From positions 2,374,501 through 2,438,500 of the forward strand of contig NZ_CP013264.1 of the NCBI RefSeq assembly GCF_001456115.1: 64,000 bases of DNA, given 5' to 3'. Shown here one piece after another: positions 39,927 to 64,000 of this stretch. This DNA is from Sphingobium baderi (GTDB lineage: Bacteria > Pseudomonadota > Alphaproteobacteria > Sphingomonadales > Sphingomonadaceae). Below the pieces are notes generated by a model. The model made no database searches. It was not told where the DNA came from and saw nothing but the letters and a program-made list of their open reading frames with translations. Each line of letters opens with the position of its first letter. Within the stretch, counting starts at the first letter, position 1. A program made the position numbers and the translations under genes.

Positions 39927-39971
39927 TGGCGCACCCAAGAGGATTCGAACCTCTGGCCTCTGCCTTCGGAG
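39927..39971 (-). other. 3' 45 nt of tRNA-Arg(CCG): attachment-site half
   Basis: On the minus strand the anticodon loop CTCCGAA (anticodon CCG), 3' anticodon stem GGCAG, variable loop AGGCC, T-arm AGAGG-TTCGAAT-CCTCT, acceptor strand TGGGTGC, discriminator G and encoded CCA are all present in order. The bases before the loop (read on the minus strand, gttctaatt) do not pair with GGCAG and no 5' half exists, so this is not a functional tRNA gene. A fragment ending exactly at CCA next to a tyrosine integrase is the usual product of integration into a tRNA 3' end. Confidence 0.88.
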
Positions 39972-40164
39972 AATTAGAACATGGGCCACGCCACGGTTTG
40001 ATGTTCTATGCCAAACTACGAAAATCTACGCTAATACGCTATATTAATTAGGTTTTTTATCAAATAGAATGCGCCGCTGGTACGCTGTTCTAACCGGGAC
40101 TTTGCTCCCACCTGCTTCCGTGGTGCTTCCGCGGAAGCAGGCCAGATGCCGGAGGTATTTCGCA

Positions 40165-41642: not shown

Positions 41643-41924
41643 TCAGTCGTTGACCTTGTCCTTGAGCGCCTTCGCGGCGGTGAAGGTCACACGCCTGGAC
41701 GCACGGATCGTTATCGTTTCACCGGTAGCGGGGTTGCGGCCCTCACGCGCAGCTGACTGCTTTACGCGGAACTTCCCGAACCCGTTGAAGGAAACTTCCT
41801 CTCCATTGGCGGCCGCATCGCCGATCAGCCCAAGGATGGCATCGAAATATTTCTTGGCATCAGCTTTCGAAATACCCTGCGAGGCGGAAAGGGCTTCTAC
41901 AATGTCATTTCCAGTCATTCGCAC
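41643..41924 (-). CDS. HU-family DNA-binding protein
   Basis: 93 residues from a GTG, or 91 from the ATG at 41918. DIVEALSASQGISKADAKKYFDAILGLIGDA forms the helical part. VSFNGFGKFRVKQSAAREGRNPATGETITI is the HU/IHF signature with the DNA-inserting Pro in RNPATGE. It is the last gene of the long minus-strand train and the GTG directly follows the previous stop. It could serve nucleoid structure, regulation of the locus, or assist the integrase that ends 110 bp away in the opposite orientation. Confidence 0.9.
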   Translation of the reverse strand: MRMTGNDIVEALSASQGISKADAKKYFDAILGLIGDAAANGEEVSFNGFGKFRVKQSAAREGRNPATGETITIRASRRVTFTAAKALKDKVND

Positions 41925-42116
41925 TCATACTTTCATTGGTGATGAAAATCTCTTCGGTAGCGGCCCGCGGGAGAGAGGTCGGCGCGCCTTGAAGCGGGCC
42001 CGCTTCAGCGCCTCGTCGCCATAATCGCGCTGGATCTCGTCCAGCGCTCGGGCAACGGCCTCGTCGAACCGAGGGGAATGACGCCAGCGGTAGCGATCAA
42101 GCCAACAGGACAGCAT
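41925..42116 (-). CDS. Small charged helical ORF, 63 residues
   Basis: From the ATG at 42116 it encodes a helical, charged protein (RFDEAVARALDEIQRDYGDEAL in two parts) with a basic C-terminus. Upstream in-frame starts at 42182 (ATG) or 42173 (GTG) would add a plausible segment (PYRPFAIML) and overlap the previous gene. None has a clear Shine-Dalgarno. A competing 49-residue frame starting at 42154 is less protein-like. Function unknown. Confidence 0.5.
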   Translation of the reverse strand: MLSCWLDRYRWRHSPRFDEAVARALDEIQRDYGDEALKRARFKARRPLSRGPLPKRFSSPMKV

Positions 42117-42150
42117 GATCGCAAAAGGCCGATAAGGAAAAGAGCGAGGG

Positions 42151-42636
42151 TCATGTCCGGTTGAGCGACGCACTCTGGCCATCGGTGGGAGCAGAAGCTG
42201 GTGTCGGCGCATCGAGCTGGACCGCGATGCGCATCGGCAGCAGCATATCGCGCGGCGGTATAGAGGCGAGCTTCTGGCCGACGATGAGCGCCTGCATATC
42301 CGCATTGGCCTGCTCGTGTGCGAAAGGTGGATAGTCGATCCGCGACACCATTCCCTCGCCATCGACCCAGATCTTAACAACCAGCAGCGCGGTGGGCTGA
42401 TAGGGCGCGGGTCGCGTCGCATCGAGGTAGGTCCGCAGCCGGCTGGCAATTTCGCTATCAGCCTGAAGCAGCTCAGTGATGCTCCTCGTAGCCGTTTCGG
42501 CATAGGCGATCCATGCTGCGGGCGCCTGTTCAGGAGAGACAGGCTGCGCGGCAACAGGTGCGCTGGCAGCAAGCCCGACACCGACAAGCGCCGCCGTCCA
42601 GCGGCCGATACGCGCAAGGATCGAAGGATTGTGCAT
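42151..42636 (-). CDS. Exported TonB-C-like protein without membrane anchor
   Basis: 161 residues from the ATG at 42636. A signal peptide ends near AQPVSPEQ (cleavage after PVAA, about residue 30). The mature protein resembles a TonB C-terminal domain: ITELLQADSEIASRLRTYL, then LLVVKIWVDGEGMVSRIDYPPF (strand-turn-strand with G.v....i), then ALIVGQKLASIPPRDMLLPM. Unlike ordinary TonB it has no retained helix or proline-rich spacer. It may be a periplasmic adaptor or decoy that contacts TonB boxes of the porin or adhesin machinery in this locus. Confidence 0.7.
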   Translation of the reverse strand: MHNPSILARIGRWTAALVGVGLAASAPVAAQPVSPEQAPAAWIAYAETATRSITELLQADSEIASRLRTYLDATRPAPYQPTALLVVKIWVDGEGMVSRIDYPPFAHEQANADMQALIVGQKLASIPPRDMLLPMRIAVQLDAPTPASAPTDGQSASLNRT

Positions 42637-42638
42637 GG

Positions 42639-42872
42639 TCACGCCGTGCCTCCCAAAATGAGATACCCATAGAGAAGGGCAACGCCACAGGTTAGCAGCC
42701 CGTAGAACCATAGCTGTACTGGCGTGATTGGCTGCTCCCGCTTGCGCAGGCTACGGCGTTCTTGTTCGGCACGACATGCGCGATGGCTCGTCTGTATGTC
42801 CCGCCACCAGCCTGACAACCCGCTCGCGCTGGAAAGGGGCTGCTCGTAGCGGATCAATTTACTGGTTGGCAT
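42639..42872 (-). CDS. Small tail-anchored membrane protein, 77 residues
   Basis: From the ATG at 42872 (MPTSKLIRYEQPLSS). A charged Arg/Glu-rich N-terminal half (RACRAEQERRSLRKREQ) is followed by a C-terminal helix (LWFYGLLTCGVALLYGYLIL). It overlaps the preceding gene by 14 bp and ends 2 bp before the next, so it is embedded in the operon. I do not recognise the family. Confidence 0.65.
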   Translation of the reverse strand: MPTSKLIRYEQPLSSASGLSGWWRDIQTSHRACRAEQERRSLRKREQPITPVQLWFYGLLTCGVALLYGYLILGGTA

Positions 42873-43065
42873 GGGACGATCCCGACGGGGTTGCTTTTCC
42901 GGCCGCCGAATGAAGAACCATGGGCGCCGCCATTGCGAACATATGGCTGTCGACGATCCGCACCGCCTCGCGATGGATGACGCCAATCACCAAACAGGCC
43001 CCGGCGCCCGCGAGAAGAACGCCCAGCACGAATCCGACAACGACCAGGCCGATGGCCGACAGCAT
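42859..43065 (-). CDS. Small membrane protein, 68 residues
   Basis: An N-terminal hydrophobic helix (AIGLVVVGFVLGVLLAGAGA) could be a signal anchor, followed by a short hydrophilic part (HREAVRIVDSHMFAM). It lies 24 bp after the Skp-like gene and overlaps the next gene. Family not recognised. Confidence 0.65.
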   Translation of the reverse strand: MLSAIGLVVVGFVLGVLLAGAGACLVIGVIHREAVRIVDSHMFAMAAPMVLHSAAGKATPSGSSHANQ

Positions 43066-43089
43066 GATGTTTTCCTTTCCCGTCGCGGC

Positions 43090-43704
43090 TTACTGGACCG
43101 TCGGCGTGACGGGCTGCTGCGGCAGTCGCTCGCGTTCGAAGGTGATCGTCTGGATGCGGCCATCGAGCGCGCGCACGACATCGGCGGTCAGATCATTGGC
43201 GAAATTGCCGCCAAGCGCCGCGCCGCGATCGAACAGCAGGCCGCATTTCTTGCTGCCATAGACCTGGGCGATCACTGGCTGTGCTTCATTGGCGATGCGT
43301 TCCAATGCCTTGGCGCGGGTCGCCTCGATCTCGCGGCTGGAATGAGCGGCCTGCTGCTGGAGCGTCTGCCAACGGGTCGCCAGAGCCTGACGGCGCTGCC
43401 GCATTTGCGCGTTGTCCGGCTGCCCTTCGAGCGCCTTGGCTTCGGTTTCGAGCGGCGTGCGCTGCTGGTCGATGCCGGTCTGTGCGGCGCGGGTCAGTTC
43501 GGCAAGCCGGGCCGACGCCGCCTTGCCGACCGCAGCATTGGCGAAGATCGCCTCGCGCGAGAGCAGGCAGACGCCGGGGATCACGGGGCCGCCGAGCGGC
43601 TGCGCGGCGGGCGCCTGTGCGGGCTGGGCGCCGCCCACGGTCTGCGCCGACGCGGCCGAAGCGGAAGCAAGAAGAATGGCGGAGAGGATAAGTTTACGGG
43701 ACAT
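43090..43704 (-). CDS. Skp/OmpH-like periplasmic chaperone
   Basis: 204 residues with a signal peptide (cleavage near SASAQ, residue 20). A conserved strand (GVCLLSREAIFANAAVGKAA) matches the Skp core. A long helical hairpin (about residues 60-150, rich in Ala/Gln/Glu/Arg) forms the tentacle arms of Skp. KKCGLLFDRGAALGGNFANDLTADVVRALD closes the body. Skp holds unfolded outer membrane proteins. A dedicated copy next to a giant exported protein suggests a client-specific chaperone. Coupled to SapC by a 1-bp stop/start overlap. Confidence 0.82.
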   Translation of the reverse strand: MSRKLILSAILLASASAASAQTVGGAQPAQAPAAQPLGGPVIPGVCLLSREAIFANAAVGKAASARLAELTRAAQTGIDQQRTPLETEAKALEGQPDNAQMRQRRQALATRWQTLQQQAAHSSREIEATRAKALERIANEAQPVIAQVYGSKKCGLLFDRGAALGGNFANDLTADVVRALDGRIQTITFERERLPQQPVTPTVQ

Positions 43705-44555
43705 CAGGAAGCGACTTTCTTGGACTTGGTGGATGCGGGCACGGCGGCGGGATCAGCAGAAGCAGGTGCTTGTGACTCCGGCGCGACAGCCACGGCGAGC
43801 GCCTGGCGATTGAGCAGCGCGGTGAAGCGATCGAGCGAGGCCATGTGGAAATTGATCCAGGGGAGGTAGCCGTTGTTGTGCCACTCGAGCACCACCTCGT
43901 CGGGGAGCTGGGAGTATTTGGCCGGGTCAATGACCTGAAAGCCTTCGAGCCCCAGCTTGCGGCCATCAGGCAATGTCGCGTCGGCACGGCGGTCGACCAG
44001 CAGGTTCTGTTCACGCAGCGCGTTGGCGAACGCCATCGTGTCGCGCGCCTCGGCCTGGAAGGCGTTGCAGAAGTCCAGCGCCTGCTTGGTCAGCGCCGAA
44101 GGCGCGCCATTCTCGAAAAGCGCGGCGCCATCACTGCCCGTTTGCAGGACGCGGTCTGACCCGGTGTCGATCGCCAGCGCAAAGCCGTTGGGTCCGTCCT
44201 TGCCGGCCTCCATTGTGGCGAGAAAGCCGAAGGGATAGCGCCGCACGTAGGCCGGGACATAGGCGTCCGCGATCCAGCGGCCATCCTCGATGAAAAGATT
44301 GCGCCGTTCCAGACCCAGAATGGCGATCGGCTGCGCATCACCGGCAGCGAACACGATCGGGTAATCGCGCGCGGCCTGCGCCAGCTCGCCCACAACGATT
44401 GGCACATAGGGCGCTTCAGCCGCAAAGGACGCATCGCCCTGCGCCAGCCGCCAGTCTGCGTGACGCTCGATATGCAGGGGTGCGAGCGCCTTGTAGAACA
44501 GCGGGAGCCGCGGCGCGGTGCTTGTCGCCGCTGTGGTGGCGGATTGGTCAGTCAT
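43704..44555 (-). CDS. SapC-family protein
   Basis: 283 residues matching the SapC family (named from Campylobacter S-layer genes): LPLFYKALAPLHIERHADWRL near the N-terminus, FAAEAPYVPIVVGELAQAARDYPIVF, then DGRWIADAYVPAYVRRYPF and ALVREQ-like segments later. No signal peptide is obvious, so it is probably cytoplasmic. A small Pro/Ala/Lys-rich tail follows. SapC proteins in proteobacteria lie near outer membrane receptors; here it directly follows the giant adhesin gene by 50 bp and precedes the Skp-like gene. Confidence 0.88.
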   Translation of the reverse strand: MTDQSATTAATSTAPRLPLFYKALAPLHIERHADWRLAQGDASFAAEAPYVPIVVGELAQAARDYPIVFAAGDAQPIAILGLERRNLFIEDGRWIADAYVPAYVRRYPFGFLATMEAGKDGPNGFALAIDTGSDRVLQTGSDGAALFENGAPSALTKQALDFCNAFQAEARDTMAFANALREQNLLVDRRADATLPDGRKLGLEGFQVIDPAKYSQLPDEVVLEWHNNGYLPWINFHMASLDRFTALLNRQALAVAVAPESQAPASADPAAVPASTKSKKVAS

Positions 44556-44605
44556 ATGATCTCCAGGAGGAAAATGGCGGGGCGGCAGCGCCGCCCCGCA
44601 GGGGA

Positions 44606-47600
44606 TTACTCGCCGAAGCCGAGGAAACGGACGTTGAGGATCGTCGGAATCTCGGTGCGCATCTGCGGGCGCGCCCGTTCCGCGAGGTCCGCTGCCTGAT
44701 TGGCGACGGCGCTCGCAGCCGAGCTAGCCGAGGTGAGGGCGCCTGTATTGACCGCGACCACTACCGGGATGCCGGTCGCTTCGCCCTCAACCTTGATGTT
44801 GGCGGCGTTTAGGATCTGCAAGGCCGCCAGATTGATGTCGCCCGACACGCGGATGCCCGCTTCGCCCGCGTCGATCACGCCCAGCGGCGCGATCAGGTCG
44901 ATATCGCCTGGCGGGATTTCCGGGATCGGCGCCAGCGTGGCGATGCCCGCCCCGGTGTTCTGCGTCGGTGGCGACAGGGTGACGTTGCCGAACGTGTCAT
45001 AGACCCGGCGCGGCGGCTGATAGACCACCGTGCTCTTGGCCCCGCGCCCGGCGTTGATGTCGCCCTGCGCCGACCACATCAGCAGATCGCCGCCGAATGT
45101 CGTGAACACGCGGCTTTTCCCCAGCAGGATCGAGCCCAGCGAATAGATGTCGATATTGCCCGATCCCATGGAGAGCACGCCCGCCGTGGAAGGCGGCGCG
45201 ATGCCGCCCACGCCCAGCGTCGTCTGGCCGCCGGCCACCAATATCTCGACATCGCCGCCGAATTCGGTGCGCGTGCCCGATGCGCCGAACATCGTCAGGT
45301 TGCCGCCATAGGATATGGCGTTGCCGTCCGCGTCCGTCTCCGGGAACAAGGCGGCGATGGCCAGACGGCTGCGCAGATAGCTGCTCAGGCGCCCGCTTTC
45401 GATCTTGCCGCTATATTCCCGCCCGCCGATCTTCAGCTCGTCGAAATAGACCTCCCGGGCGAAGATCGCCTGCTCCTGTTCGGTGCGAGTGGCGAAGAAG
45501 GCGCGCGCATCCTCCGCATCCGTCGCTTCATAGCCGAAGCGCGCCTCCAGCCATGCGGCCAGTTCCTCGCCATAATTCTTGGCGACCTTCTGCACGTCTT
45601 CGACGAAGCCTTCGTCATTGACGACATTCTGTTCGCCAAGTCCGCGACCAGCGTCCGCCAGATTTTCCGGGTTCAGATAGAGGTCGAGGAAGCGGGCATA
45701 GTCCGGCCCGCCCGCGCCCACGCCGGTCAGCACGGTGATGGCCGCGCCGCCGTTGCGGGTTTCGGGCGACAGGTCGAACAGCGGGCCGACGCTTTTGAAC
45801 ATGCCGCGATCGGCCTGATAGATGTCGCGCCCCGCCTCGATCACCAGATTGCCCGCCCCGGCGACATTCATGCTGGAATAGATGATGTCGCGCCCGGCGG
45901 ACATGATCGAGATGTCGCGCGGATCGTTGTGGACCACAAGGCCCCGGATCATGCCCACGCCGGTCAGATAGTAATTGGGCGTGGTCCGGCAACTGGCCGG
46001 GCCGCCATAGCCGCAGCCCAGTTGCGGGTTGGAGCCGAAGTTCACGATATCGCGCCCGGCGCGGATTTCCGCCGGTCCGGCCCCGATATAATGGGGCATC
46101 ATATCCTGCCAGCCCATGAAGCCGACGCTGAAGTTGGAGATATCGCCATCCACCGCATAGAAGCGCATCGGATCGCGCTGGCCGTCATAGAGCCGACCGA
46201 GCGCTGTATCGCGCTGGAACGCCACCAGGCTGTTGGCAGCGGTGCCGGGAGCGTTGAAGAGCGTCGGCAGGCCGTGATTGGCGGGCGCGCCCCAGGTGCG
46301 GACATAGTGGCTTTCCCAATTGGGCCGGAACGGATTGGGCACATCATTGGGGTTGAGCGCCATGCCCGACATGCCGACCGCGAGACCGGATGCGTGAATA
46401 TTCTGTTCCGTGCCCGCCCCGCGGATCGAGCCGCCGATCAGGAATTCAAGGCTGCCATTGGGCGATGGCGCCAGTTCCAGCACCGGCAGGCCAGAGCCAG
46501 TGGGACCGCTGGAACAGGACGAACTGGACGCGCTGCAAGAGCCGACATCGACAAACAGATCGCCATGGGCCGCGATCACGCTGAGCGTGCCGGGGAACCA
46601 ATAGCGGCCATCGTCCATCTTGCTGATATTGCGGGTGCTCACATTGGCCGTGTTGTCATACACCAGCGGCGTCAGATCGCCACCGGCCGAGAACAGGCTG
46701 ATCGAGGTATCTTCCCGCCACAGGCTGAAGCCGGTGCGCAATATGTCGCCGGCGACGCGCCCGAAGGTCGGATCGCCATCGGGATCGAAAGTTTCGATGG
46801 TGCCCATGACACAGGCGCCCGGATACAGGTCGCAGACTGGGAAGCCGGGGTCGAGCGCCCATTCCTCCACAGGCTGGCCGGCCGTGCCCCACCCGCTGTT
46901 ATTGTTCGACCAGACGAGGGTCGGGACGAGGGTGGTCGGTGGCACGAACCGCCCGAAGGAAACGCCGGCATTGGCCGACTGGCCGACGCGGCCCGGATCG
47001 ACGACGCCCGCGATCACCATGTCGCCGCGTGTGTTCACGCTCACATGGCCGTCACCCGGCGCCAGCCCGATGCCGCCCCGGCTGTAGGCGTTGGCCGGGT
47101 GCAGCGGATCGGGAACGCGCGGGTCGATCGTCGTGGTCAGGATATAGGGCTGGATGACGCCGATGGAGCCGGCGGCGATGTCGATATCGCCGCGCAGATT
47201 GACGAACGTGCCGTTGAGATCGCCGGCATGATTGGTGCCCGAGCCGGGGTTGAGCCCGCCGCCGATCTTCACGATCATGTCGCCGCCGCCGGTCTGCACC
47301 AGCGTGCCGCCAGTCACGCGCCCTTCCACCATCGTCACCTGCGTCACTCGCCCGGTGCCGCCCACCGAAAGGTTCAGCCCGCTCGATGCGATCGCGCCGA
47401 GCCCATTGTCGTTGGTGCCAGTGGCAGTGGTCGCCCAATTCTCCATCACGCCAGCATTGCCGCCCGCCGTCACGGTAAGATTACCGCCGCCCAGCGTACC
47501 GATGCCCATGAAGCCTTCCAGCAGCGGCCCATTCTGGTTGTTCGGGGCGGTCGCGCTGTTGGCATAGGGGTTATTGGCCACATAGCCGCCAAAGTTGATC

Positions 47601-50600
47601 CACCAGGCCGTGGGCGTATCCGCCCCGCCCATGATGTCCGCCTGGCTATAAGCGCCCTGCCGCCACAGCCAGTTGCCCATGGCGGCGCTGCCCACCCGCA
47701 TATAGGCGGAAGTGCGCGTGGTGGTGTAGGATCGGATATCGCCCTGCACCGCCAGCAGCAGATCGCCGCCGTGTTCGGGATACCAGGCGCGATAATCCTC
47801 CATCGCGGTGCGATATCCGGCGAACGCTGCATCGCCCAGCCATGGGTTGGCGGGATCGCCGCCATTCAGCGTGGCGCGCGGCTGGTTGAACTCATTATAG
47901 CCATCCGGCGTCAGCCCGCCGATATCGGCCGTGGGCGTGCCCGCCGTATAAATGCCGTAGAGCGAGGATTGCTGATAACCGCCGCCCGCCAGCAGATCGA
48001 GCGATCCGGTGCCGGTGCGGATCACCGAGAAATTCTGCATCCGGTTGAGTGCGAGCGCCCAGGTGGGGCTGATGCCGAAATCCGTCTCCGCATTGGGGTT
48101 CACATAGTGCCGGTCCGACAGCAGGAGATCGCCGGACAGCCCCTGTTCCGCCAGCGCGGTTTCGGAGCTGAGCGTGCGGCCATCGGCGGATGCGATATCC
48201 GCTCCCGCCACCAGCCGCATCGACCAGCTTTCGGAGCCTTGCGGCAACATCGGGGCCACGGCCCAGATGCGTCCCTGCGTGCCATCGGGCAAAGTGGGCC
48301 GCATCGACGCGCCGCCGATCTGCCGCACAGTGGTTCCGGCGGGCAGCACCGTGCCGGCCGCTACCGTTACCGGCGCATTGAGGTTGATCGCCTCGCTGAA
48401 GACATCGAGCGGCGTTCCGGCGGGCAACGTCATGGATTCGATATTCATGGTGCCGGGGCTGCCTGCGTTCTGCCGCGGGAGCACCGTGCCCGCTCCAAAG
48501 CGTGAGCCGGACGGAATGTTGAGCGTAATCAGGTCGCCCGGCCGATAGAGGAGCGTACCTTGGGCGTTCCAGATATTGGCCGTCGCCACCCAGCCATCGG
48601 CCATCCATGACGGCTTCGACATCGAGATGCTGCTGACGAACTCGAACGGGATCACCACATCGCGCCACAACCGCGAGGATCTGCGTATCTCGATATCGAA
48701 ATCGAGCGTGCCGCGGTTGGCGAAGCTGCTGACCACGCCCGATGTCCCGCCGGCCAGCGTCAGTTCGCTGTCAAGCGTCAGCGGGGCCGCAAGCAGGCCG
48801 GAGATCCGGTCCAGCGCCACATTGCTGTTGCGCGGGATGATGTCGCCGGCCTGCAATTGTGCCGGGCCTGACAGGGTGAGCATGGCGGGCAGTTCCGCGC
48901 CCGCCGGCCATGTCATCGCTTGCAGGCTCACCTGCTGCGGCAGCACCGTGCCCGTGCCCAGCACCGTATCGGCAGGCAGCAGCGTGCCCGCCGGCAGGAT
49001 CGCGCCGCGCGCGTGAATAGTGCCATCGGGCAGGGTGACGGGGGCCGTCAGCACCCATTCGCGGTTCAGCGTCAGCGCGGTGTTCAGTCGGCTTTCCGCG
49101 CCGATCACCCGGTTGGCGACGACGTTGAAGCCGTTGACCTCAATGTCATAGCCCAGCACCGCGCCCAGCGGCAGCACCGCGCCGGCGCCCAGCCGCATCG
49201 CGCGGGGCACATGATAATCGGCGGGCCAGGCGTTGCTGGTGGCGTTCTGCCCCCCGGCATAGAGCACCCAGCCATTATCGTCCGGCGTGCGCGCCGGCTC
49301 GGCGAAACCATCGGTGATGGAGCCGAAGATATTGAGATCGTCGGCCGCGCGCACCAGCAGCACGCCCGCCTCGCCCGAACCGTAAACGGCGGTGCGCTGC
49401 GTGTCGACGTTCAGGCTGGCATAGCGATACCCGGCAAGGTTGAGATCGCCCGAGACGCTGAGGCTTTCGCCTGCCGCGCTCACCAGCTCCACTCCGGGGC
49501 GCAGGTGGAAAGCATCCGCATAAGCGCGCAGGCCCGCCATGCGGCCCAGCAGCGCGGCATTGCCGATGGCGGCGTTGATGAAGGCGTCGCTATCGGCATG
49601 GATACCGTCCATCAGCGCCTGATTGATGACGCCGCCCGCCGGTTCATAGCTGCGGAAAGCATTGACCGCGATGCTGTCCGCGCCGCTGATATTCACCGCC
49701 TGCGCGGCGGCGATCGCGACATCGTTGCTGCCTCTGCGCTGCGCGTTCAGCTCGATCCGCCCGCGCGCCACATCGTCGGCGGAGGACAGGTCGATCGTCG
49801 CGCCCTGTTGCAGCGCCAATGTGCCGCCCGCCGAAGTCAGTTCGACGAGGCCGCGATTCTGCGCCTCGACCGGCGCGCCATAGCTGTCCACCCACAGTTC
49901 GCTGGCGCTGGCGTCCAGCACCGCGCTGCCGGCCAGCGTCAGATCGTCCCTCGCGGACAGGCGGATGGTGCCGGGCTTCGCGCCGCTGGCGTCGATCCGG
50001 CCGTTGACCGTCAGGCTACCGCCATCGGCCGAGATGGTGACATTGCGCGCCACGATCTCGTCGCCGATCGCCAGATCGCCGGTCTTGACGATGAAGCTGC
50101 GGCTATCGGTGACGCCGCTTTCGGTGAGCCCCGTGTTGAGGCCCGCGAAATCGGCGATGGTCCCCGCGCGGATGTCGATGGAGCCGTTGCGCAGTTCCGG
50201 GTCGGCTTCGTCGTCCGCGCCCGTCGCATGGCCGGTGATCGCGCCGTCCAGCGTGACCGTGCCTTCCACCGCCGTCACCTTGAGAGTGCCCGCATGATTA
50301 TGCTGCGCGCCGATGGCGATGCTGGCCCCTTGCGCCAGCGAAACATCGCCATGCGCGCTTTCCAGCACCACGTCGCCGCCCCAGCTATAGCGGGTCTGGT
50401 CGAAGAACTCGGTCGGACGCCCGGCCATGTCGATGACCGCGCCGTCGCCCAGCACAATGTCGCCCTGCGTTGCCGTCATCACCAGCCGCCCGCTGGGCAG
50501 CGCCACATGGGTATCGGCGGCGATGCTGGCCCCGGTCAGGCGGATTTCCCCGCCAAGTGCCGCCTCGGCGCTTTCCGCCGTGCCGCCTTCGGGCGCGCTC

Positions 50601-58192: not shown

Positions 58193-58317
58193 CGGGTCAT
58201 CTCCGGCAGGCTGATGGCCGCCTCCGCAAAGCGGGCGGCTGCATTATGGGTGGTGTTCGGAAAGGCTTGGCAACGGGCAGGGACGCAGCCGCCCCGACCG
58301 GAAAACTCGTGGATCAT
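58189..58317 (-). CDS. 42-residue ORF coupled to genes on both sides
   Basis: The ATG at 58317 overlaps the stop of the upstream gene (ATGA), and its own TGA overlaps the ATG of the giant adhesin gene (again ATGA). The frame fills the entire 121-bp gap exactly. The product has two cysteines (GRGGCVPARCQAF) and ends with RFAEAAISLPEMTR. No signal peptide or helix long enough for a membrane. It may be a real microprotein or a translated leader that couples adhesin synthesis to the upstream genes. Too short for family recognition. Confidence 0.6.
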   Translation of the reverse strand: MIHEFSGRGGCVPARCQAFPNTTHNAAARFAEAAISLPEMTR

Positions 58318-59009
58318 GGCCGGCTGCCTCTCGGCGGCCGCGATGGGGGACGTTCGGAATGGACCGAACGGCCGAGCGCATCACCCATGCGCAGGCGCGT
58401 CGCGCCCTGATGGGCGACGCCGGTCTGGATATCGGGCGATCCCGCGCCGACGACCGGCGCGTCGATCCCGGCGCGGGCCTGGCTCTGCGCGGTATCGGCG
58501 GCGGCTTGCAGGCGATCGGTGGCGCAATCGAGATGACCGGCCTTGTGACCGGCGATATCGACGATCACGCAGGGCGACGCCCCGGGCGCTCCACCGATCC
58601 GGCGGGCCGGCTTCGGCTCGGCCTGACGATCGGCTTCGACGACAGCCGGAGTCAGAATGAGCATTGGCGCATTGTCAGTCTTTCGCTCGCCTTCTTGCCG
58701 GGCGGCAGCGCTCTGCGTGGGCAGCAAGGGGGCGAGAATGAAGGCAAGGCTGGCTGTGATAAGGGTGCGGATACGCGGAAAGGGAAAACGCGTATCCGCA
58801 CAGGCCAGTGGACGATACCGCGTGCCGGGGAGTTGTGGCCGCGGTGCCTTGCCGGCATTGCTGCGCCGGATTGGGTTATGACCAGGCGCGCTCCGCGTGG
58901 CCCGGCTCCGCTCACCGAGGGAAGCGGTCGGAGCCGGGCGTCGATTCCCGTCTGCCTGTGCGATCTGGCGCAGACGGGTCGCGAGCATTAGGAGCGTTGC
59001 GGTGGACAT
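58314..59009 (-). CDS. Exported hypothetical protein next to the adhesin
   Basis: 231 residues as opened from the ATG at 59009 (GAGGGG upstream). A hydrophobic segment with an Ala-rich cleavage site (LITASLAFILAPLLPTQSAA) begins only near residue 83, so the first 80 residues, which are Arg/Pro-rich and contain a 13-bp inverted repeat at DNA level, may not belong to the mature gene. After it come APMLILTPAVVEADR, PCVIVDIAGHKAGHLDCATDRLQ (two Cys) and TGVAHQGATRLRMGDALGRSV. I recognise the last segments as a pattern seen in small proteins beside haemagglutinin genes, without known function. It is coupled to the 42-residue ORF. Confidence 0.65.
   Translation of the reverse strand: MSTATLLMLATRLRQIAQADGNRRPAPTASLGERSRATRSAPGHNPIRRSNAGKAPRPQLPGTRYRPLACADTRFPFPRIRTLITASLAFILAPLLPTQSAAARQEGERKTDNAPMLILTPAVVEADRQAEPKPARRIGGAPGASPCVIVDIAGHKAGHLDCATDRLQAAADTAQSQARAGIDAPVVGAGSPDIQTGVAHQGATRLRMGDALGRSVHSERPPSRPPRGSRP
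58765..58801. repeat. Perfect 13-bp inverted repeat
   Basis: gtgcggatacgcg / cgcgtatccgcac with an 11-nt loop, inside the 5' part of the exported hypothetical gene and directly before its signal-like segment. Such a stable hairpin in the message may control processing or translation. Confidence 0.7.
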
Positions 59010-59026
59010 CAGGATCGCGCCGCCCC

Positions 59027-60844
59027 TCAGAACCGCGTCATCAGGTCGATGAAGCCGCGATCGACGCTGAACGGCACGCCGGCGATTTCCTCGGCCGCCA
59101 GCCAGCGGAAGCCCAGGACCGTATCCTTGGCGATCGCGTAATTGCCACCGATCTGCCAGCCGCGATTGTTGGTGCCGCCGATGTGGAAATCGCTGTCGGC
59201 AAAGGCATCGACCACCGCGTCGCTCTCAAGGCGGCGGTAAGCGATATTGGCGTTCCAGTCGCCAGCCTTGGCCTGCCATGCGCCGGCGCCCGCGAGGTTC
59301 AGCAGGGACCCGACCGTCAGGCGCGCCTGCCAGCCGGTATCGCCGCCTTCATAGGGACCATCGACGGTCAACGTGCCGTTGGTGTTGTCCGGGTCGGGAA
59401 TGGTGATCTGCGGCCCGAGATTATTGACCGCGCGCGCCATCAGCGTGGAACGATCCCAGCCGAGATTCTTGACGAAATCGCCTTCGAGGCGGACGCCGAA
59501 GCCGTTGGTCGGCCTGTATTCCACCTGACCCCGCACATGCAGAATCTCGAATTTCGACGCTAACCCGAAATACTGGTTGTTCGGCGACTGCGGAATATTG
59601 TTCGGATTGGGGATGACGTTTCGGATCGGGAACAGGGTGTTGCCGAACTGCTGGAACGCGGGACGGGTGATGTCGGTCGAGCAGACCAGTTCGTCCCAAT
59701 AGCAGGGCTCGGAGACCTTGCCCGCGATATTATCGAAGTGGAAATAGCCGCCGGCGAGGCTCAGCGTGACCTGATCGCTCGGCTTGAACTCGATGCCCGC
59801 CTGCGCGGCGAACAGATATTTGTCCTCGCTCTTGAACGGGCGGCCGGTGCCGGTTTCTGCGCCCGTGTCGGGATCTCTTAAGGTGGGCGCGTTTTGCGTC
59901 CCGAAATTGAGATCGGTGTTGAACACCGGGAAGGCGCCCAGCGTGCCGAACAACCGCACGCCGTCCGAAACCGCGCCTGCCGCCGAGAGGGCGACGCCGT
60001 CAAAGTTCATGTCATTGTCGAAGATCAGGTCGCTCGACCAGAAGGGGTTGGCGAAGCGGCCAAGGTCGATCGCGACCCCCTCGACCGGCGCGAGCCGGAT
60101 CGAGGCGCGGTCGAGCCACAGACCATAGTTGCTGGTGCCGTCGCCACCGAGCGTCTGGTTGGTGGAGATCGGCGAGCGGCCATTGCCGGTGGCGATCCGC
60201 AGGTCGGCAGTGATCCAGTCGGTGATCTGCGCCTTCAGCCCCAGACGCGCGCGCAGCTGGAAGCGCTGCCGGTCCTCCAGGCTGTTGATATAGGGCGGGC
60301 CGACATAATCGGGCGAGGCGTCATTGATGTTGAATGGGTTGCCCGCGTTGATCGCGCCATAATTGGGGAAAGCATCCAGATTGGCGTCGTCATAGCGCAG
60401 TGCCTCGCCGCGCACGCGCACATCGCCGTAAAGCTGGATGCGGCGGGTCCATTCCGGCGTCTCGCCGGGGCGCGACCAGCCCTCGGCTTGTGCCTGCTGG
60501 CCCAGCTCGCGCTTCAGGTCTTCCTTGATCTGTTCGCGCACGACCGGCGAGACATAGGTGACAGTCTGGGTGCCGTCGGCGGCTACGCCGGCCTGCGGCA
60601 GCGGTGCGGGCGCCGGAACTGCCTGTGCAGCCTGGACCTGCTGAACCGGAACGGTCGCCTTCTCGATCATCCGGTCGGCCTGGGCCTGGGTAATGATGCC
60701 TTCGGCGACAAGCTGCTCGACGAGCAGGCGCGGATCGACGGCGCTGTCCTGAGCGAGTGCCGGCGATGCGACGAGCGCGCCGCCGAATGCGCAGGCCATG
60801 AGCGCGGCCCGAAGCCGCCGTTTATGCGTGGTAAGACTGGTCAT
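59027..60844 (-). CDS. Putative porin (Porin_5-like outer membrane beta-barrel)
   Basis: 605 residues from the ATG at 60844, with AAGGGA seven nt upstream. A signal peptide ends after ALA at residue 31. The mature N-terminus has a short helical unit (LLVEQLVAEGIITQAQADRMI) as in putative porins that bind the cell wall or trimerise. A Pro/Gln linker follows, then a long beta-barrel beginning near WTRRIQLYGDVRVRGEALRYDD, with many alternating strands and a C-terminal Phe (LMTRF). It may form the outer-membrane pore of this locus; ordinary substrate diffusion is the alternative. It sits between tonB and the adhesin genes. Confidence 0.85.
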   Translation of the reverse strand: MTSLTTHKRRLRAALMACAFGGALVASPALAQDSAVDPRLLVEQLVAEGIITQAQADRMIEKATVPVQQVQAAQAVPAPAPLPQAGVAADGTQTVTYVSPVVREQIKEDLKRELGQQAQAEGWSRPGETPEWTRRIQLYGDVRVRGEALRYDDANLDAFPNYGAINAGNPFNINDASPDYVGPPYINSLEDRQRFQLRARLGLKAQITDWITADLRIATGNGRSPISTNQTLGGDGTSNYGLWLDRASIRLAPVEGVAIDLGRFANPFWSSDLIFDNDMNFDGVALSAAGAVSDGVRLFGTLGAFPVFNTDLNFGTQNAPTLRDPDTGAETGTGRPFKSEDKYLFAAQAGIEFKPSDQVTLSLAGGYFHFDNIAGKVSEPCYWDELVCSTDITRPAFQQFGNTLFPIRNVIPNPNNIPQSPNNQYFGLASKFEILHVRGQVEYRPTNGFGVRLEGDFVKNLGWDRSTLMARAVNNLGPQITIPDPDNTNGTLTVDGPYEGGDTGWQARLTVGSLLNLAGAGAWQAKAGDWNANIAYRRLESDAVVDAFADSDFHIGGTNNRGWQIGGNYAIAKDTVLGFRWLAAEEIAGVPFSVDRGFIDLMTRF

Positions 60845-60885
60845 GTTGATCCCTTTTGAAAGAATGTAGGTCGCTTCGCCCATGC

Positions 60886-61575
60886 TCAGCTGCGGGCATC
60901 GAGCTGGATGCGCATCACCGGCAGACCGGCGGGCGGACGTCGCGAAAGCTGAAGGCCGGTCAGCACCGCGCGCAGCCGCGCGTTGCGCTTCTCGTCACCG
61001 CCATCGATGATGCGCACATCGGTGATGCGGCCATCGCTATCGACGCTGACGGCAAGCTGGACCGTATAGCGGCCGCGTGACAGTTCCCGGTCGGACTGCG
61101 CCGCCTGACGGATGCCGTTCAGCGCGACCGCCGCATAGGCCCGGAACGCGTCGCCGCCGCCGGGACGTCCGCCGATCCGGGTGCCGCCGCCATCGCCTGC
61201 GGCGAGGCCGTAGTTGGACGGCCCCGCACCTTCGCGGGCGGTCAGCGCGCTGTCGCCCTGAACCGGATCGTTGCTCGCGGCTTCGGGCGGTGGGGGAGTA
61301 TCGAGCGGCTGCTCGATCGGCGGGGCGACCGTCGGTTCGGGCGGCTGTTCGACCGGCTTGGGTTCGGGCGGTGGCAGAGGTGGAGGCGGCGGCAGGATGA
61401 CCTGCGTCGTCTTCATCTCGTTGGGCCGGTCGCTGACCGATTGCCAACTGAGCATGTTATAGATCACCGCGATCGCCATGGCGACGCCAATGGCCGCGAT
61501 CACACGGCCGAAAGTGACCGGGGAACGCTTGCGGCGACCGCCCGGACCGCCCGCCATGAAGGTAGCGGCAGCCAT
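60886..61575 (-). CDS. TonB-like energy transducer
   Basis: 229 residues from the ATG at 61575, with GGGAGG six nt upstream. A cytoplasmic basic N-terminus (GGPGGRRKRSP), one membrane helix at about 22-44 (VIAAIGVAMAIAVIYNMLSW), a proline-rich periplasmic spacer (about residues 60-100, PPPPPLPPPEPKPVEQPPEP) and a TonB C-terminal domain from about 145 (RYTVQLAVSVDSDGRITDVRI). It would transmit ExbB-ExbD proton-motive force to an outer membrane partner. Coupled to the upstream 46-residue ORF (TGATG). Confidence 0.88.
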   Translation of the reverse strand: MAAATFMAGGPGGRRKRSPVTFGRVIAAIGVAMAIAVIYNMLSWQSVSDRPNEMKTTQVILPPPPPLPPPEPKPVEQPPEPTVAPPIEQPLDTPPPPEAASNDPVQGDSALTAREGAGPSNYGLAAGDGGGTRIGGRPGGGDAFRAYAAVALNGIRQAAQSDRELSRGRYTVQLAVSVDSDGRITDVRIIDGGDEKRNARLRAVLTGLQLSRRPPAGLPVMRIQLDARS

Positions 61576-61715
61576 CACAGACCTCCCAGCGACGCGTCGC
61601 GCTCTTGGTCGAAGCCCGCCAGCCACAGGCGAAGGCCTGTCCAGTCCGCGTCCCAGCCCGAGACGCTGACGCCATGCCGGAGCGCTTCGCGCCGAAGGTC
61701 GACGCCGGCCGTCAT
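61575..61715 (-). CDS. 46-residue operon microprotein
   Basis: The ATG at 61715 overlaps the previous gene's stop (ATGA), and its TGA overlaps the tonB ATG (TGATG). The sequence is soluble with three Trp (SGWDADWTGLRLWLAGFDQE). No known family. Coupling at both ends argues that it is translated. Confidence 0.6.
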   Translation of the reverse strand: MTAGVDLRREALRHGVSVSGWDADWTGLRLWLAGFDQERDASLGGL

Positions 61716-61966
61716 GGCGAGTCCGGGCTGTTGTCGGAGGGCGCCTGCGATGCCGCCGGAGCCGATGCGGCGGCAGGCATCTCCTCGATGGCCGTTGCCG
61801 GAGGGAGCACCAGCAGGATCGTGCCGATCAGCGCCAGCATCAGAGCGAGCAGGCGCCAGGCCCGACCGCTGCGCCGCCACCAGGGCTTGCGGAAGCTGTG
61901 CCGCGAACTGCGCACGACCGGTCTGCGGTCGATCATGCGGTCGAGAAGGCGGCGGATGGGGAGCAT
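61712..61966 (-). CDS. Small bitopic membrane protein, 84 residues
   Basis: A very basic N-terminus (RSSRHSFRKPWWRRSGRAW), one helix (LLALMLALIGTILLVLPPAT) and a short Ala/Pro/Ser-rich acidic tail. The charge bias predicts N-terminus in the cytoplasm. It starts 21 bp after exbD and overlaps the 46-residue ORF. Perhaps an accessory subunit of the Exb/Ton complex; not recognised. Confidence 0.7.
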   Translation of the reverse strand: MLPIRRLLDRMIDRRPVVRSSRHSFRKPWWRRSGRAWRLLALMLALIGTILLVLPPATAIEEMPAAASAPAASQAPSDNSPDSP

Positions 61967-61987
61967 GATGCATCTGTCCCTCCCGGC

Positions 61988-62404
61988 TCACGCGCCACTC
62001 GGCGGTCGCGTGGACGCCATGCCGAGGCTCGGCACGCCGACCTTGGAGCACAGGTCGAGCACCTGCATGATGCGATCATACTGAACGGCGCGGTCGCCGC
62101 GCAGGATGACCGCCAGGTCGGGCGTGTTGGCGATCGACGTGCGCAGCTGGCTTTCCAGCTCGCTCATCGACACCGGGATGGCATCGATCGACACCGTGCC
62201 GTCATTGCTGACCGCGATCACCCGCGACTTTTGCGCTTCGAGCGCCTGGGCCGAGGAGGCGGACGGCAGGTCCACCTTGATCCCCTGCACGGCGGCGGTG
62301 GTCATCAGGATGAAGATGATCAGTAGCACCAGCACCACGTCGACGAACGGAGTGATGTTGATCTCGTTATAGGGCTTCTTCCTGCCCCCGACTTGCATGG
62401 CCAT
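61988..62404 (-). CDS. exbD: ExbD/TolR-family proton channel subunit
   Basis: 138 residues. NEINITPFVDVVLVLLIIFI has the conserved aspartate (Asp22) at the start of the single membrane helix; a periplasmic domain (VDLPSASSAQALEAQ; VILRGDRAVQYDRIMQVLDL) follows. ggaggctcacgcc precedes the ATG; a second ATG is two codons later. It pairs with the ExbB-like protein encoded 27 bp upstream. Confidence 0.93.
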   Translation of the reverse strand: MAMQVGGRKKPYNEINITPFVDVVLVLLIIFILMTTAAVQGIKVDLPSASSAQALEAQKSRVIAVSNDGTVSIDAIPVSMSELESQLRTSIANTPDLAVILRGDRAVQYDRIMQVLDLCSKVGVPSLGMASTRPPSGA

Positions 62405-62431
62405 GGCGTGAGCCTCCTTCCTGTCCGGGGC

Positions 62432-64000
62432 TCAGGCCGCCTGGGCCGCGGCGGGAACGTCCTGCCACGTCTCGGCGATGCGCTTTTCCAGCTCGTCCAC
62501 GAAGATGTCGTGATCGGCCTGGATCTCTTCGATGCGGGAAAGCAGATAGTTGTAGCCGAACAGCGCCGGGATCGCGACGGCAAGGCCGGCAACGGTGGCG
62601 AGCAGCGCGGCGGCAATACCCGGCGCAATCGCGTTGATATTGACCTCACCGACAGCAGCCACGGCCGCGAAGGTGATCATGACGCCGAGCACCGTGCCGA
62701 GCAGGCCGATGAAGGGGCCGCCGGAGATGGCGATGGTCAGGAGCACGAGCCGCGCGTTCAGCTTCTGGCCCTCACGCACCCGGCCGGCATCGAGCGCCGA
62801 GCGGATCGCGGCGATCGACTGGCCGCGCAGCGCGAAGCGGCTGCCCGTCGCCTTGCCTTCGTTCAGGCGCTCCGTCAGTTCGCGCCGGCCGATATTGTAG
62901 AGCCGGCCCAGCGTCGAATCCGCCGCCGTCGCGCCCGGATCGAAAGCGGGCAGCCCGTCATGGTCGCCGGAACGCCGCGAGATCTGGCGATAGGCGTCGA
63001 GAAAGGCCTCGTTCGCCTGCCGCACCCGGCCGATCAGCAATCCCTTGCTGATCATGATCGCAATAGATAGCGCGAGCATCAGCCCGCAAATGAGGATGAC
63101 GACCCAGGCGTCGAAGGTCAGCGCCGAGAACAATATGCCCATATAGCCGTGACCGCCGCCGGTCTCGACCTGCTGCGCGGTGTCGGTGGTGATAAGGCGC
63201 GCATTCTGGCCTTCCGATGCGGCCGCCAACTGGAATGCGGACTGCGGCAGCGCCGCGCCCGCAACACGCAGTTCGTCGATCTCGCCGGCAAAGCCCTGGC
63301 CGAGAAGCGGCGCAGCGGTCGCAGGGGCAAGCGCGCCTGCGACTTCGCCGGCAGGCTGGCCGTTGATGAAGAGCAGGCTCTTGCCGCCGTCATTGACCAG
63401 CGCGACATTGGCCCAGCTATCCGCCGCCAGCGCCGCGCCGTTGCTGCGCGTGCCGTTCGCGTCGATGAAGAGCTGGCCGCCTTCGTTCACGAGGCTGATG
63501 CTGCCCGGCAGGTCGAAGATGGCGCCATCGCCACCCGGCTTGACCCAGAAGCTCAAGGACAGCGGGCCGCCGGAAAAAGCGGACGCGGGCAGCGTGACCG
63601 GGGTGGTGCCGTCCAGGACGAGACTCGATCCGATCAGGCCGCCCGCGTTCCGCGCCTCGCCGCCGCTGGCATTGTTGCCGTTGGCGGTTGCGTCCCGAGG
63701 GCTTCCTTGTTCGTTGAAATGATAAACCAGCCGGTAATCCGGCCCGAAGGTGCCCGCGACGTCCTGGCCAGCGCTTGCCGCTTCATTGCCGTAATAGGCA
63801 TAGATGGCGCTCGCCTGGCCCGGCTGAAGACCCTGCACGTCGACCCAGACCAGCGCCTGTTCTTCGGCCGGGCTCCACTTCTCGACATGGAACTTGAGCG
63901 GCGTGCGATCGTCGCCCGCGACAAAGCGCAGGTCGGAGCCGTCGGCCTTCACATCCTTGAAGCTGAAATTGCCGCTGTGCAGGCGGATGAGCACCGGCGC
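62432..64000 (-). CDS. ExbB/MotA/TolQ proton channel fused to DUF2341 and LamG-like domains (5'-truncated)
   Basis: At least 522 residues; the frame runs off the right edge. The visible N-terminal part (VLIRLHSGNFSFKDVKADG; LRFVAGDDRTPLKFHVEKW) matches DUF2341, found in large ExbB relatives. A jellyroll of LamG type (LSFWVKPGGDGAIFDLPG; GFAGEIDELRVAG) covers the next ~150 residues and should be periplasmic. Then come three membrane helices of the MotA/TolQ/ExbB domain: ILFSALTFDAWVVILICGL, ISGGPFIGLLGTVLGVMITF and IAAALLATVAGLAVAIPALF. The fusion suggests that the channel contacts a periplasmic polysaccharide or protein partner. A signal peptide is expected outside the window. Confidence 0.9.
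   Translation of the reverse strand, partial: APVLIRLHSGNFSFKDVKADGSDLRFVAGDDRTPLKFHVEKWSPAEEQALVWVDVQGLQPGQASAIYAYYGNEAASAGQDVAGTFGPDYRLVYHFNEQGSPRDATANGNNASGGEARNAGGLIGSSLVLDGTTPVTLPASAFSGGPLSLSFWVKPGGDGAIFDLPGSISLVNEGGQLFIDANGTRSNGAALAADSWANVALVNDGGKSLLFINGQPAGEVAGALAPATAAPLLGQGFAGEIDELRVAGAALPQSAFQLAAASEGQNARLITTDTAQQVETGGGHGYMGILFSALTFDAWVVILICGLMLALSIAIMISKGLLIGRVRQANEAFLDAYRQISRRSGDHDGLPAFDPGATAADSTLGRLYNIGRRELTERLNEGKATGSRFALRGQSIAAIRSALDAGRVREGQKLNARLVLLTIAISGGPFIGLLGTVLGVMITFAAVAAVGEVNINAIAPGIAAALLATVAGLAVAIPALFGYNYLLSRIEEIQADHDIFVDELEKRIAETWQDVPAAAQAA

What the first reader, a model, noticed from the sequence alone, without database searches (positions are those of the whole stretch)
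41643..64000. Candidate proton-driven export/display machine for a giant haemagglutinin
One minus-strand gene train joins ExbB (with DUF2341 and LamG-like domains), ExbD, TonB, a porin, an exported unknown protein, a 4,528-residue TPS-domain haemagglutinin with a DUF3739-type end, SapC, a Skp-like chaperone, a secreted TonB-C-like protein and several microproteins. Classical two-partner secretion needs only a TpsB/FhaC barrel, which is not in the window. Dedicated TonB-ExbBD, chaperone and porin genes interleaved by 1-4 bp overlaps suggest a composite system in which proton-motive force drives release, stretching or anchoring of the fibre. Families are recognised; the joint function is inference.
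Basis: partly seen in the sequence, partly recalled or inferred. Interest (0 to 1): 0.85.

Follow-up and report, generated by a model that had tools for sequence, protein, structure and literature searches.

The report
Motor-linked giant exoprotein secretion locus
This stretch of a bacterial chromosome carries a known but little-studied kind of gene cluster that is expected to secrete a giant surface protein through an outer-membrane pore and that, in the genomes examined, nearly always comes with its own proton-motor genes, so it is a good place to test whether this kind of secretion, thought to need no energy source, is in fact powered.

Summary
The gene train is real, but the inference from a missing pore is wrong: a normal TpsB gene (POTRA_2 + ShlB) lies just outside the window at 64171-65880 and overlaps exbB by 1 bp. 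By gene order and domains the locus belongs to a known kind, the Pseudomonas Vre/PUMA3-Pdt two-partner secretion locus (tpsB, exbB, exbD, tonB, porin, giant tpsA, VreA, ECF sigma, FecR-type anti-sigma, AraC, LysR). The hunch that the motor is dedicated is well supported. Of 299 Pseudomonadota genomes DUF3739 occurs in 11, full-length Porin_5 in exactly those 11, DUF2341 in 10 of those 11 and in no other; 134 have ShlB. In 185 genomes of the class of Pseudomonas all 12 DUF3739 genomes also have DUF2341. The ExbB of this kind has Ala where E. coli ExbB/TolQ have an essential Glu; its TpsB proteins seem too short at the N-terminus for an FhaC-type plug helix plus linker; the TpsA C-terminus is conserved to a last strand-like motif. 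Alphaproteobacterial copies add SapC, Skp and a soluble TonB-like protein. What the motor does is untested here and I found no paper showing it. Powered export or display remains open; signalling and nutrient uptake are rivals.

The parts
62432..64000 (-). exbB: DUF2341, LamG-like domain, MotA/TolQ/ExbB channel; full gene 62432-64171. tpsB follows outside the window at 64171-65880 (-), with 1 bp overlap
   Evidence: Pfam; extension L003; Ala at the Glu-176 place
61988..62404 (-). exbD
   Evidence: Pfam ExbD E 1.6e-30; membrane Asp aligned with that of solved ExbD (7ajq)
61712..61966 (-). small protein with one hydrophobic stretch between exbD and tonB (84 aa)
   Evidence: relatives in 11 loci including the window
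60886..61575 (-). tonB1: hydrophobic anchor, Pro-rich stretch, TonB-type C-terminal domain (ATG at 61575 is my choice; the listed ORF starts at GTG 61626)
   Evidence: profile comparison; found in 41 of 41 ExbB loci
59027..60883 (-). porin_5: outer-membrane barrel family
   Evidence: Pfam Porin_5 E 1.5e-186; full-length copies only in the DUF3739 genomes among the 299
58314..59009 (-). small exported protein with two conserved Cys between porin_5 and tpsA
   Evidence: after exbB in 23 of 41 loci; 28 rows aligned, alignment A3; no Pfam or NCBIfam match
44606..58192 (-). tpsA: 4,528 aa, TPS domain near the N-terminus, DUF3739 near the C-terminus
   Evidence: Pfam; NCBIfam adhes_NPXG
44609..44650 (-). 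codons of the last 14 residues of TpsA: conserved C-terminal strand-like motif ending GFGE
   Evidence: pattern in 31 of 34 TpsA C-termini
43704..44555 (-). sapC; no signal peptide seen by eye, so probably cytoplasmic
   Evidence: Pfam E 3.1e-60; next to DUF3739 in 25 of 32 places
43090..43704 (-). ompH/skp-like periplasmic chaperone
   Evidence: Pfam E 2.1e-18; in 17 of 20 fetched downstream stretches besides the window
42859..43065 (-). small membrane protein
   Evidence: 8 of 21 downstream stretches including the window
42639..42986 (-). small protein with hydrophobic C-terminus, start uncertain
   Evidence: 5 of 21 downstream stretches including the window
42151..42711 (-). exported soluble protein with TonB-type C-terminal domain
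   Evidence: profile comparison with VreA 97.4 and TonB1 95.6
41643..41924 (-). HU-type DNA-binding protein at the end of the train (226 bp gap, may be separate)
   Evidence: Pfam E 2.2e-29; 7 of 21 downstream stretches including the window

Best explanation
The locus is an alphaproteobacterial version of the Vre (PUMA3)/Pdt two-partner secretion locus of Pseudomonas. Shown here: the gene set, its order and its co-occurrence. Inferred: TpsB exports the giant TpsA; the dedicated ExbB-ExbD-TonB1 motor, which has no TonB-dependent transporter among the genes scanned beside it, acts on the outer-membrane pair TpsB/Porin_5, or on the C-terminal end of TpsA still in the periplasm, to open the pore or finish export and hold the protein on the surface. 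Skp keeps TpsA unfolded. VreA carries a TonB1-type end fused to a signalling domain; it would compete for the same site and report its state to the FecR-type anti-sigma factor, which sets free the ECF sigma factor for tpsA. Phosphate starvation is the likely outer switch. My confidence in the identity alone is about 0.95; the number below is for identity plus the motor acting on export or display.
For: tpsB just outside. AraC, TonB2, VreA (STN + TonB_2), ECF, FecR and LysR beyond it. A Pseudomonas locus (L045) has PhdA-like, TpsB, ExbB, ExbD, TonB, Porin_5, one protein without clear Pfam match, YbjN, PpiC, LysR in that order (named Pseudomonas), which is the published P. aeruginosa order. Co-occurrence: of 299 genomes, DUF3739 in 11, DUF2341 in 10 of those 11 only, full-length Porin_5 in the same 11, ShlB in 134; of 185 genomes of the class of G127, DUF3739 in 12, all among the 18 with DUF2341. 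tpsB directly before exbB in 37 of 41 loci, 2 of the 4 misses being contig ends. In G219 exbB-exbD-tonB lie on another contig than tpsB-porin-tpsA yet are kept. One motor/porin set goes with several TpsA in G174 (3 DUF3739, 1 DUF2341, 1 Porin_5). Short TpsB N-terminus. Conserved TpsA end.
Against: No call shows physical or functional coupling. Type V secretion is held to need no energy source, and translocation of TpsA proteins into liposomes without external energy is reported in the review (PMC5422565, passages). The Glu that is essential in E. coli ExbB/TolQ is Ala here; the authors of PMC8599685 took loss of that Glu in Sphingobium SYK-6 ExbB3 as a sign that it likely does not work as ExbB. 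In P. aeruginosa mutants in tpsA, tpsB, the tonB homologue PA0695 and PA0696 kept VreI-induced zebrafish virulence, and deleting vreA had no effect on regulation or virulence, which speaks against the VreA step. In 12 of 41 loci tpsA does not follow within 8 kb (4 of them cut by contig ends).
Confidence: 0.55

Rival explanations
1. The motor serves signalling only. TonB1-ExbBD energises transfer of a surface signal through VreA to the anti-sigma factor, as Ton systems do in classical cell-surface signalling, while TpsA export runs unaided.
For: VreA lies within 9 kb upstream of exbB in 26 of 41 loci, ECF and FecR in 30 of 41 each; VreA has the same TonB-type end as TonB1 (99.0).
Against: The motor is bound in order to tpsB and Porin_5 rather than to the signalling genes, which change place and strand. 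No TonB-dependent receptor among the genes scanned at the locus. VreA was dispensable in P. aeruginosa.
Confidence: 0.2
2. The locus is an uptake system under phosphate starvation. TpsA at the surface binds a nutrient source, as HxuA binds haemopexin, and Porin_5 with the motor brings the freed nutrient in.
For: HxuA-HxuB-HxuC precedent (PMC5422565, passages). PhoB control of the P. aeruginosa locus (PMC4971064, passages); PHO-box-like sites here in 6 of 29 intergenic regions. Full-length Porin_5 goes with DUF3739 without exception in the 299 genomes.
Against: No family match says what Porin_5 carries. HxuC is a TonB-dependent transporter; none was found among the genes scanned here. 23 of 29 intergenic regions do not stand out for a PHO box, and L003 as a whole has no more matches than chance.
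Confidence: 0.2
3. An ordinary two-partner system with bystander Ton genes that share only a promoter.
For: In P. aeruginosa phdA, pdtB, exbB2D2, tonB4 and PA0696-PA0701 share one promoter. A mutant in the tonB homologue showed no virulence change.
Against: Near-perfect co-occurrence across the genomes searched, while most ShlB genomes lack the set.
Confidence: 0.05

Closest known systems
Vre (PUMA3)/Pdt locus of Pseudomonas aeruginosa (vreAIR, pdtA, phdA, pdtB, exbB2, exbD2, tonB4, PA0696-PA0701)
   Same: TpsA, TpsB, ExbB, ExbD, TonB, porin, VreA with signalling and TonB-like domains, ECF sigma, anti-sigma, LysR and AraC genes
   Different: tpsA lies downstream of the porin here; SapC, Skp, small membrane proteins, a soluble TonB-like protein and HU where Pseudomonas has YbjN and PpiC; an extra TonB2; no PhdA between AraC and tpsB; type II secretion genes were not searched for
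Classical two-partner secretion, FhaB/FhaC
   Same: TPS domain on TpsA; POTRA_2 and ShlB barrel on TpsB
   Different: dedicated motor and second barrel; DUF3739 end; N-terminus of TpsB seems too short for plug helix plus 30-residue linker
Housekeeping ExbB-ExbD-TonB and TolQ-TolR
   Same: channel family, ExbD Asp, anchored Pro-rich TonB
   Different: N-terminal DUF2341 and LamG on ExbB; Ala in place of the essential Glu; below NCBIfam cut-offs for ExbB and TolQ
HxuA-HxuB-HxuC of Haemophilus influenzae
   Same: two-partner secretion linked to TonB energy (PMC5422565, passages)
   Different: HxuC is a TonB-dependent transporter; none among the genes scanned here

Membership tests
Vre/PUMA3-Pdt locus | tpsB followed by exbB, exbD, tonB and a porin | tested here: met
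   Pseudomonas locus L045 with the same order
Vre/PUMA3-Pdt locus | VreA: signalling (STN) domain plus TonB/TolA-like end, no barrel | tested here: met
   STN 2.7e-06 (27.5 bits, just under the cut-off 28.4) and TonB_2 1.3e-05, 262 aa; 99.0 to TonB1
Vre/PUMA3-Pdt locus | ECF sigma factor and FecR-type anti-sigma factor beside it | tested here: met
   FecR 1.7e-12 over cut-off; Sigma70_r4 3.7e-05, just under cut-off; both upstream of exbB in 30 of 41 loci each
Vre/PUMA3-Pdt locus | PhoB control through a pho box | tested here: inconclusive
   own locus 11 of 14 (1 of 60 shuffles), L009 14 of 14, but only 6 of 29 regions stand out; consensus recalled; dinucleotide test on L003 not significant
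Vre/PUMA3-Pdt locus | YbjN and PpiC genes downstream, PhdA before tpsB | tested here: not met
   present in L045, absent among the genes scanned here; I count these as Pseudomonas accessories, not as defining the core
Two-partner (type Vb) secretion | TPS domain on TpsA and POTRA + ShlB barrel on TpsB | tested here: met
   (CdiB 6wim)
Two-partner (type Vb) secretion | plug helix H1 and periplasmic linker before POTRA1 (usual; helix reported as dispensable) | tested here: not met
   by length only: median 28 residues (17-61) from end of signal hydrophobic core to POTRA in 30 of 39 TpsB frames; the rest had no motif match or, L058, were dropped by hand; FhaC figures from PMC5422565
Ton motor | ExbD membrane Asp | tested here: met
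   D in 28 of 40 by strict pattern, visible as MLDLAYV in 10 of the other 12, 2 not seen
Ton motor | ExbB Glu-176, essential in E. coli | tested here: not met
   Ala in 39 of 39 locus frames with the motif and in L055 by eye; L026 is frame-broken there; Ala in 240 of 240 listed homologues, the best 120 of each of two searches; Glu in own-genome paralogues L086 and L087, no motif in L089 and L090
Ton motor | proton-driven work on an outer-membrane partner | not testable with these tools
   needs mutants

The most novel reading that the evidence does not exclude
A powered type Vb secretion system: the dedicated ExbBD-TonB motor with its Glu-less ExbB grips the conserved C-terminal strand of DUF3739 TpsA proteins in the periplasm (a TonB-box-like handle) and, through a TpsB without plug helix and the obligate partner barrel Porin_5, drives or locks their display, while VreA, carrying the same gripping domain, reports the state to the cognate sigma factor of each TpsA.
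Probability: 0.25. Interest if true: 0.88.

Novelty: new variant of a known kind. Interest (0 to 1): 0.5.

Why it matters
Two-partner secretion is described as needing no energy source. A conserved set in which the giant substrate, its pore, a second barrel and a proton motor are inherited together makes it directly testable whether that rule has an exception. It also gives a likely context, within Pseudomonadota, for the DUF2341 domain on ExbB, for Porin_5 and for the SapC genes that sit by tpsA, and it ties environmental sphingomonads and Brevundimonas to a locus that the papers seen here treat as a Pseudomonas virulence regulon.
Full report
What is there. The window is G000:C1:2374501-2438500 of a 4.58-Mb genome. 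Pfam finds ExbB with DUF2341 and LamG, ExbD, Porin_5, a 4,528-residue TpsA with TPS domain and DUF3739, SapC, OmpH/Skp and HU. The TonB gene scores poorly alone (E = 0.075). When profiles of the relatives are compared, its C-terminal domain matches that of VreA (probability 99.1) and of TonB2 (96.0), and the soluble protein at 42151-42711 matches VreA (97.6) and TonB1 (97.0); TonB2 against that soluble protein gave only 6.3. With rows chosen mainly by position the values are 99.0, 90.7, 97.4, 95.6 and 5.0, and an unrelated exported family used as control gave 0.1-0.6. So four proteins of this locus carry related TonB-type ends: two anchored, one fused to a signalling domain, one soluble (anchors and export signals read by eye). 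Overlaps between genes are rarer than claimed: two of 1 bp, two larger ones that rest on uncertain starts, and gaps of 2-226 bp elsewhere.

Just outside. The stretch to the right (L003, window coordinate = L003 position + 60000) holds a 569-aa TpsB (ShlB 1.8e-23, POTRA_2 4.2e-12) that overlaps exbB by 1 bp, then an AraC-type gene. Diverging from it run TonB2, VreA (STN + TonB_2), an ECF sigma factor, a FecR-type protein and a LysR gene. Beyond these are a Fic protein and VirB-type conjugation genes.

What kind it is. The Pseudomonas aeruginosa PUMA3/Vre locus has vreA, vreI, vreR, pdtA, phdA, pdtB, exbB2, exbD2, tonB4, a putative porin PA0696, PA0697, a YbjN protein, a PpiC protein, a LysR and an AraC gene (PMC2729926 and PMC7035377, passages seen). 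The 2009 paper already reported that the cluster goes with the TPS system, ExbBD and PA0696 homologues in P. fluorescens, P. [quoted passage not shown] I did not have the P. aeruginosa genes themselves. As a stand-in, genome G127, whose ExbB cluster is named Pseudomonas, has a stretch (L045) with a Phd/transposase-domain protein, ShlB, DUF2341-LamG-ExbB, ExbD, TonB_2, Porin_5, a protein without clear Pfam match, YbjN, PpiC and LysR in that order. The identification is therefore by gene order and domain content, which I consider near certain.

How constant it is. In the same 299 Pseudomonadota genomes DUF3739 occurs in 11, DUF2341 in 10, all among those 11, and Porin_5 in 16, of which the 11 with full-length matches (E below 1e-100) are exactly the DUF3739 genomes; the other five have weak or partial matches (G145, G198, G232, G256, G290). 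ShlB occurs in 134 (131 over its cut-off). The DUF3739 genome without DUF2341, and without a listed ShlB match, is G230, a draft of about 70 contigs. For all 10 DUF2341 genomes the protein is this ExbB (window and L045-L061). In 185 genomes of the class of G127, DUF3739 occurs in 12 and DUF2341 in 18, with all 12 among the 18. In 11 of the 12 a DUF2341 match lies in an ExbB-sized frame (595-728 residues); in G414 its frame has 1,632, so ExbB is not shown there. Of the six genomes with DUF2341 but no DUF3739, five have it in frames of 1,093-4,506 residues and one (G417, 85% complete) in an ExbB-sized frame of 620. DUF2341 also occurs in archaea (two control genomes), so the link holds within the phylum only. 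G127 and G019 are in both sets, and related genomes are not independent. Of 41 loci with this ExbB, tpsB stands directly before it in 37, exbD follows in 40, tonB1 in 41, Porin_5 in 39; tpsA follows within 8 kb in 29 and the small exported gene in 23. The misses include contig ends (L008, L024, L025, L026) and true rearrangements (L055, L061; L045-L048, L050 and L052 have tpsA elsewhere). All these loci were reached through ExbB or DUF2341, several come from one genome or near relatives (for example L046 and L047), so the counts describe neighbours, not independent events.

The alphaproteobacterial addition. Next to DUF3739 lies SapC in 25 of 32 places in 22 genomes (the 7 misses are G315:C1, G316:C1, both places in G301, G302:C38, G319:C4, G314:C25; one of the 25 is broken by a stop). 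Against constancy: in G146 and G219, of the window's own family, SapC lies on other contigs; G094 has it elsewhere; G127, G174 and G270 have none. In 20 fetched downstream stretches besides the window SapC is found in 17 and OmpH/Skp in 17; HU in 6, the two small membrane proteins in 7 and 4. In Pseudomonas a PpiC protein lies in the same operon, so a dedicated periplasmic helper may be a shared need (inference).

Features that set the machine apart. (1) ExbB has Ala at the place of E. coli Glu-176, which PMC8599685 (passages) calls essential; the alignment with TolQ structures shows Glu there (that this is residue 176 is recalled). It is Ala in 39 of 39 locus frames with the motif, also in L055 when read by eye, while L026 is frame-broken at that place, and in 240 of 240 listed homologues, the best 120 of each of two searches and so close relatives. 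Two other family members of the same genome have Glu (L086, and L087 by eye); the remaining two, L089 and L090, lack the motif. The ExbD Asp is kept. The same paper took loss of this Glu in another ExbB as a sign of lost function, so the feature cuts both ways. (2) The mature TpsB begins close to POTRA1: from the end of the signal's hydrophobic core to POTRA the median is 28 residues (30 of 39 TpsB frames, range 17-61, a crude measure). FhaC has a helix through the barrel followed by a 30-residue linker (PMC5422565, passages), so there seems no room for both. The review notes that the helix is dispensable but the linker needed, so this is a difference, not a disqualification. (3) TpsA is conserved to its very end: DUF3739, a variable stretch and a strand-like motif such as ILNVRFLGFG. 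A pattern written from the alignment fits 31 of 34 C-termini and 0.5% of shuffles; misses are L079, L056, L057, some fits are loose (L049, L060, L080, L084), and a few rows are duplicates or near-duplicates. (4) One motor and porin set can go with several TpsA: G174 has 3 DUF3739, 1 DUF2341 and 1 Porin_5, and the two TpsA genes seen in L052-L054 are each preceded by a VreA-ECF-FecR cassette.

Regulation. In P. [quoted passage not shown] Between AraC/TpsB and the signalling genes, 6 of 29 regions have a best PHO-box match reached by at most 1 of 60 base shuffles: the window's own locus (11 of 14), L008 (13), L009 (14), L021 (12), L027 (11), L033 (12), all pointing to araC; the other 23 do not stand out. 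L008 and L009 have near-identical maps. Over L003 as a whole the number of matches is no more than chance. I take phosphate control as likely but not shown here.

Mechanism. Shown: anatomy, order, co-occurrence, and the sequence peculiarities. Inferred: export of TpsA by TpsB (family knowledge); action of the motor on TpsB/Porin_5 or on the TpsA end, because no TonB-dependent receptor was found among the genes scanned beside the motor and because motor, porin and DUF3739 are inherited together; competition by VreA. Against it stand the accepted view that type V secretion needs no energy source, the Ala in ExbB, and the published mutants: tpsA, tpsB, tonB-homologue and PA0696 insertions did not lower VreI-induced virulence in zebrafish and vreA deletion changed nothing. 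Signalling-only and nutrient-uptake readings remain open at about 0.2 each.

Verdict. Known kind, new variant, function of the motor open. The finding is ordinary as the discovery of a system and valuable as a sharpened question.

Noticed in passing
window 39929-39971 and 40069-41532 (+): A tRNA 3'-end-like fragment (recalled as Arg-type; ARAGORN finds no tRNA) beside a tyrosine-type integrase gene (Pfam Phage_integrase), with VirB-type conjugation genes beyond the other side of the locus (L003:13219-17494): the secretion locus may be cargo of an integrated conjugative element.
   Followed up: partly
window 43704-44555: SapC family: confident predicted fold with no solved counterpart by sequence, Foldseek or VIA-align.
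   Followed up: yes
window 44606-58192: All 8 Cys of TpsA lie in four close pairs (1482/1486, 3787/3794, 3886/3893, 4060/4068); of 7 other long TpsA frames one has none and the rest have close pairs, some with extra single Cys near the frame start.
   Followed up: partly
window 45929-58660 (+): Long plus-strand open frames (858, 1955, 1232 aa) opposite tpsA, most likely mirror frames of a GC-rich gene.
   Followed up: no
G314 (Sandaracinobacteroides sayramensis, L023): Five DUF3739 matches in one genome, one next to a SapC interrupted by a stop.
   Followed up: no
L003:11748-12917: DUF4172-Fic protein between the secretion locus and the conjugation genes.
   Followed up: no
P0240: A DUF2341-ExbB labelled Bacillus subtilis is 89% identical to a Pseudomonas protein: probably a mislabelled or contaminated record.
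   Followed up: no
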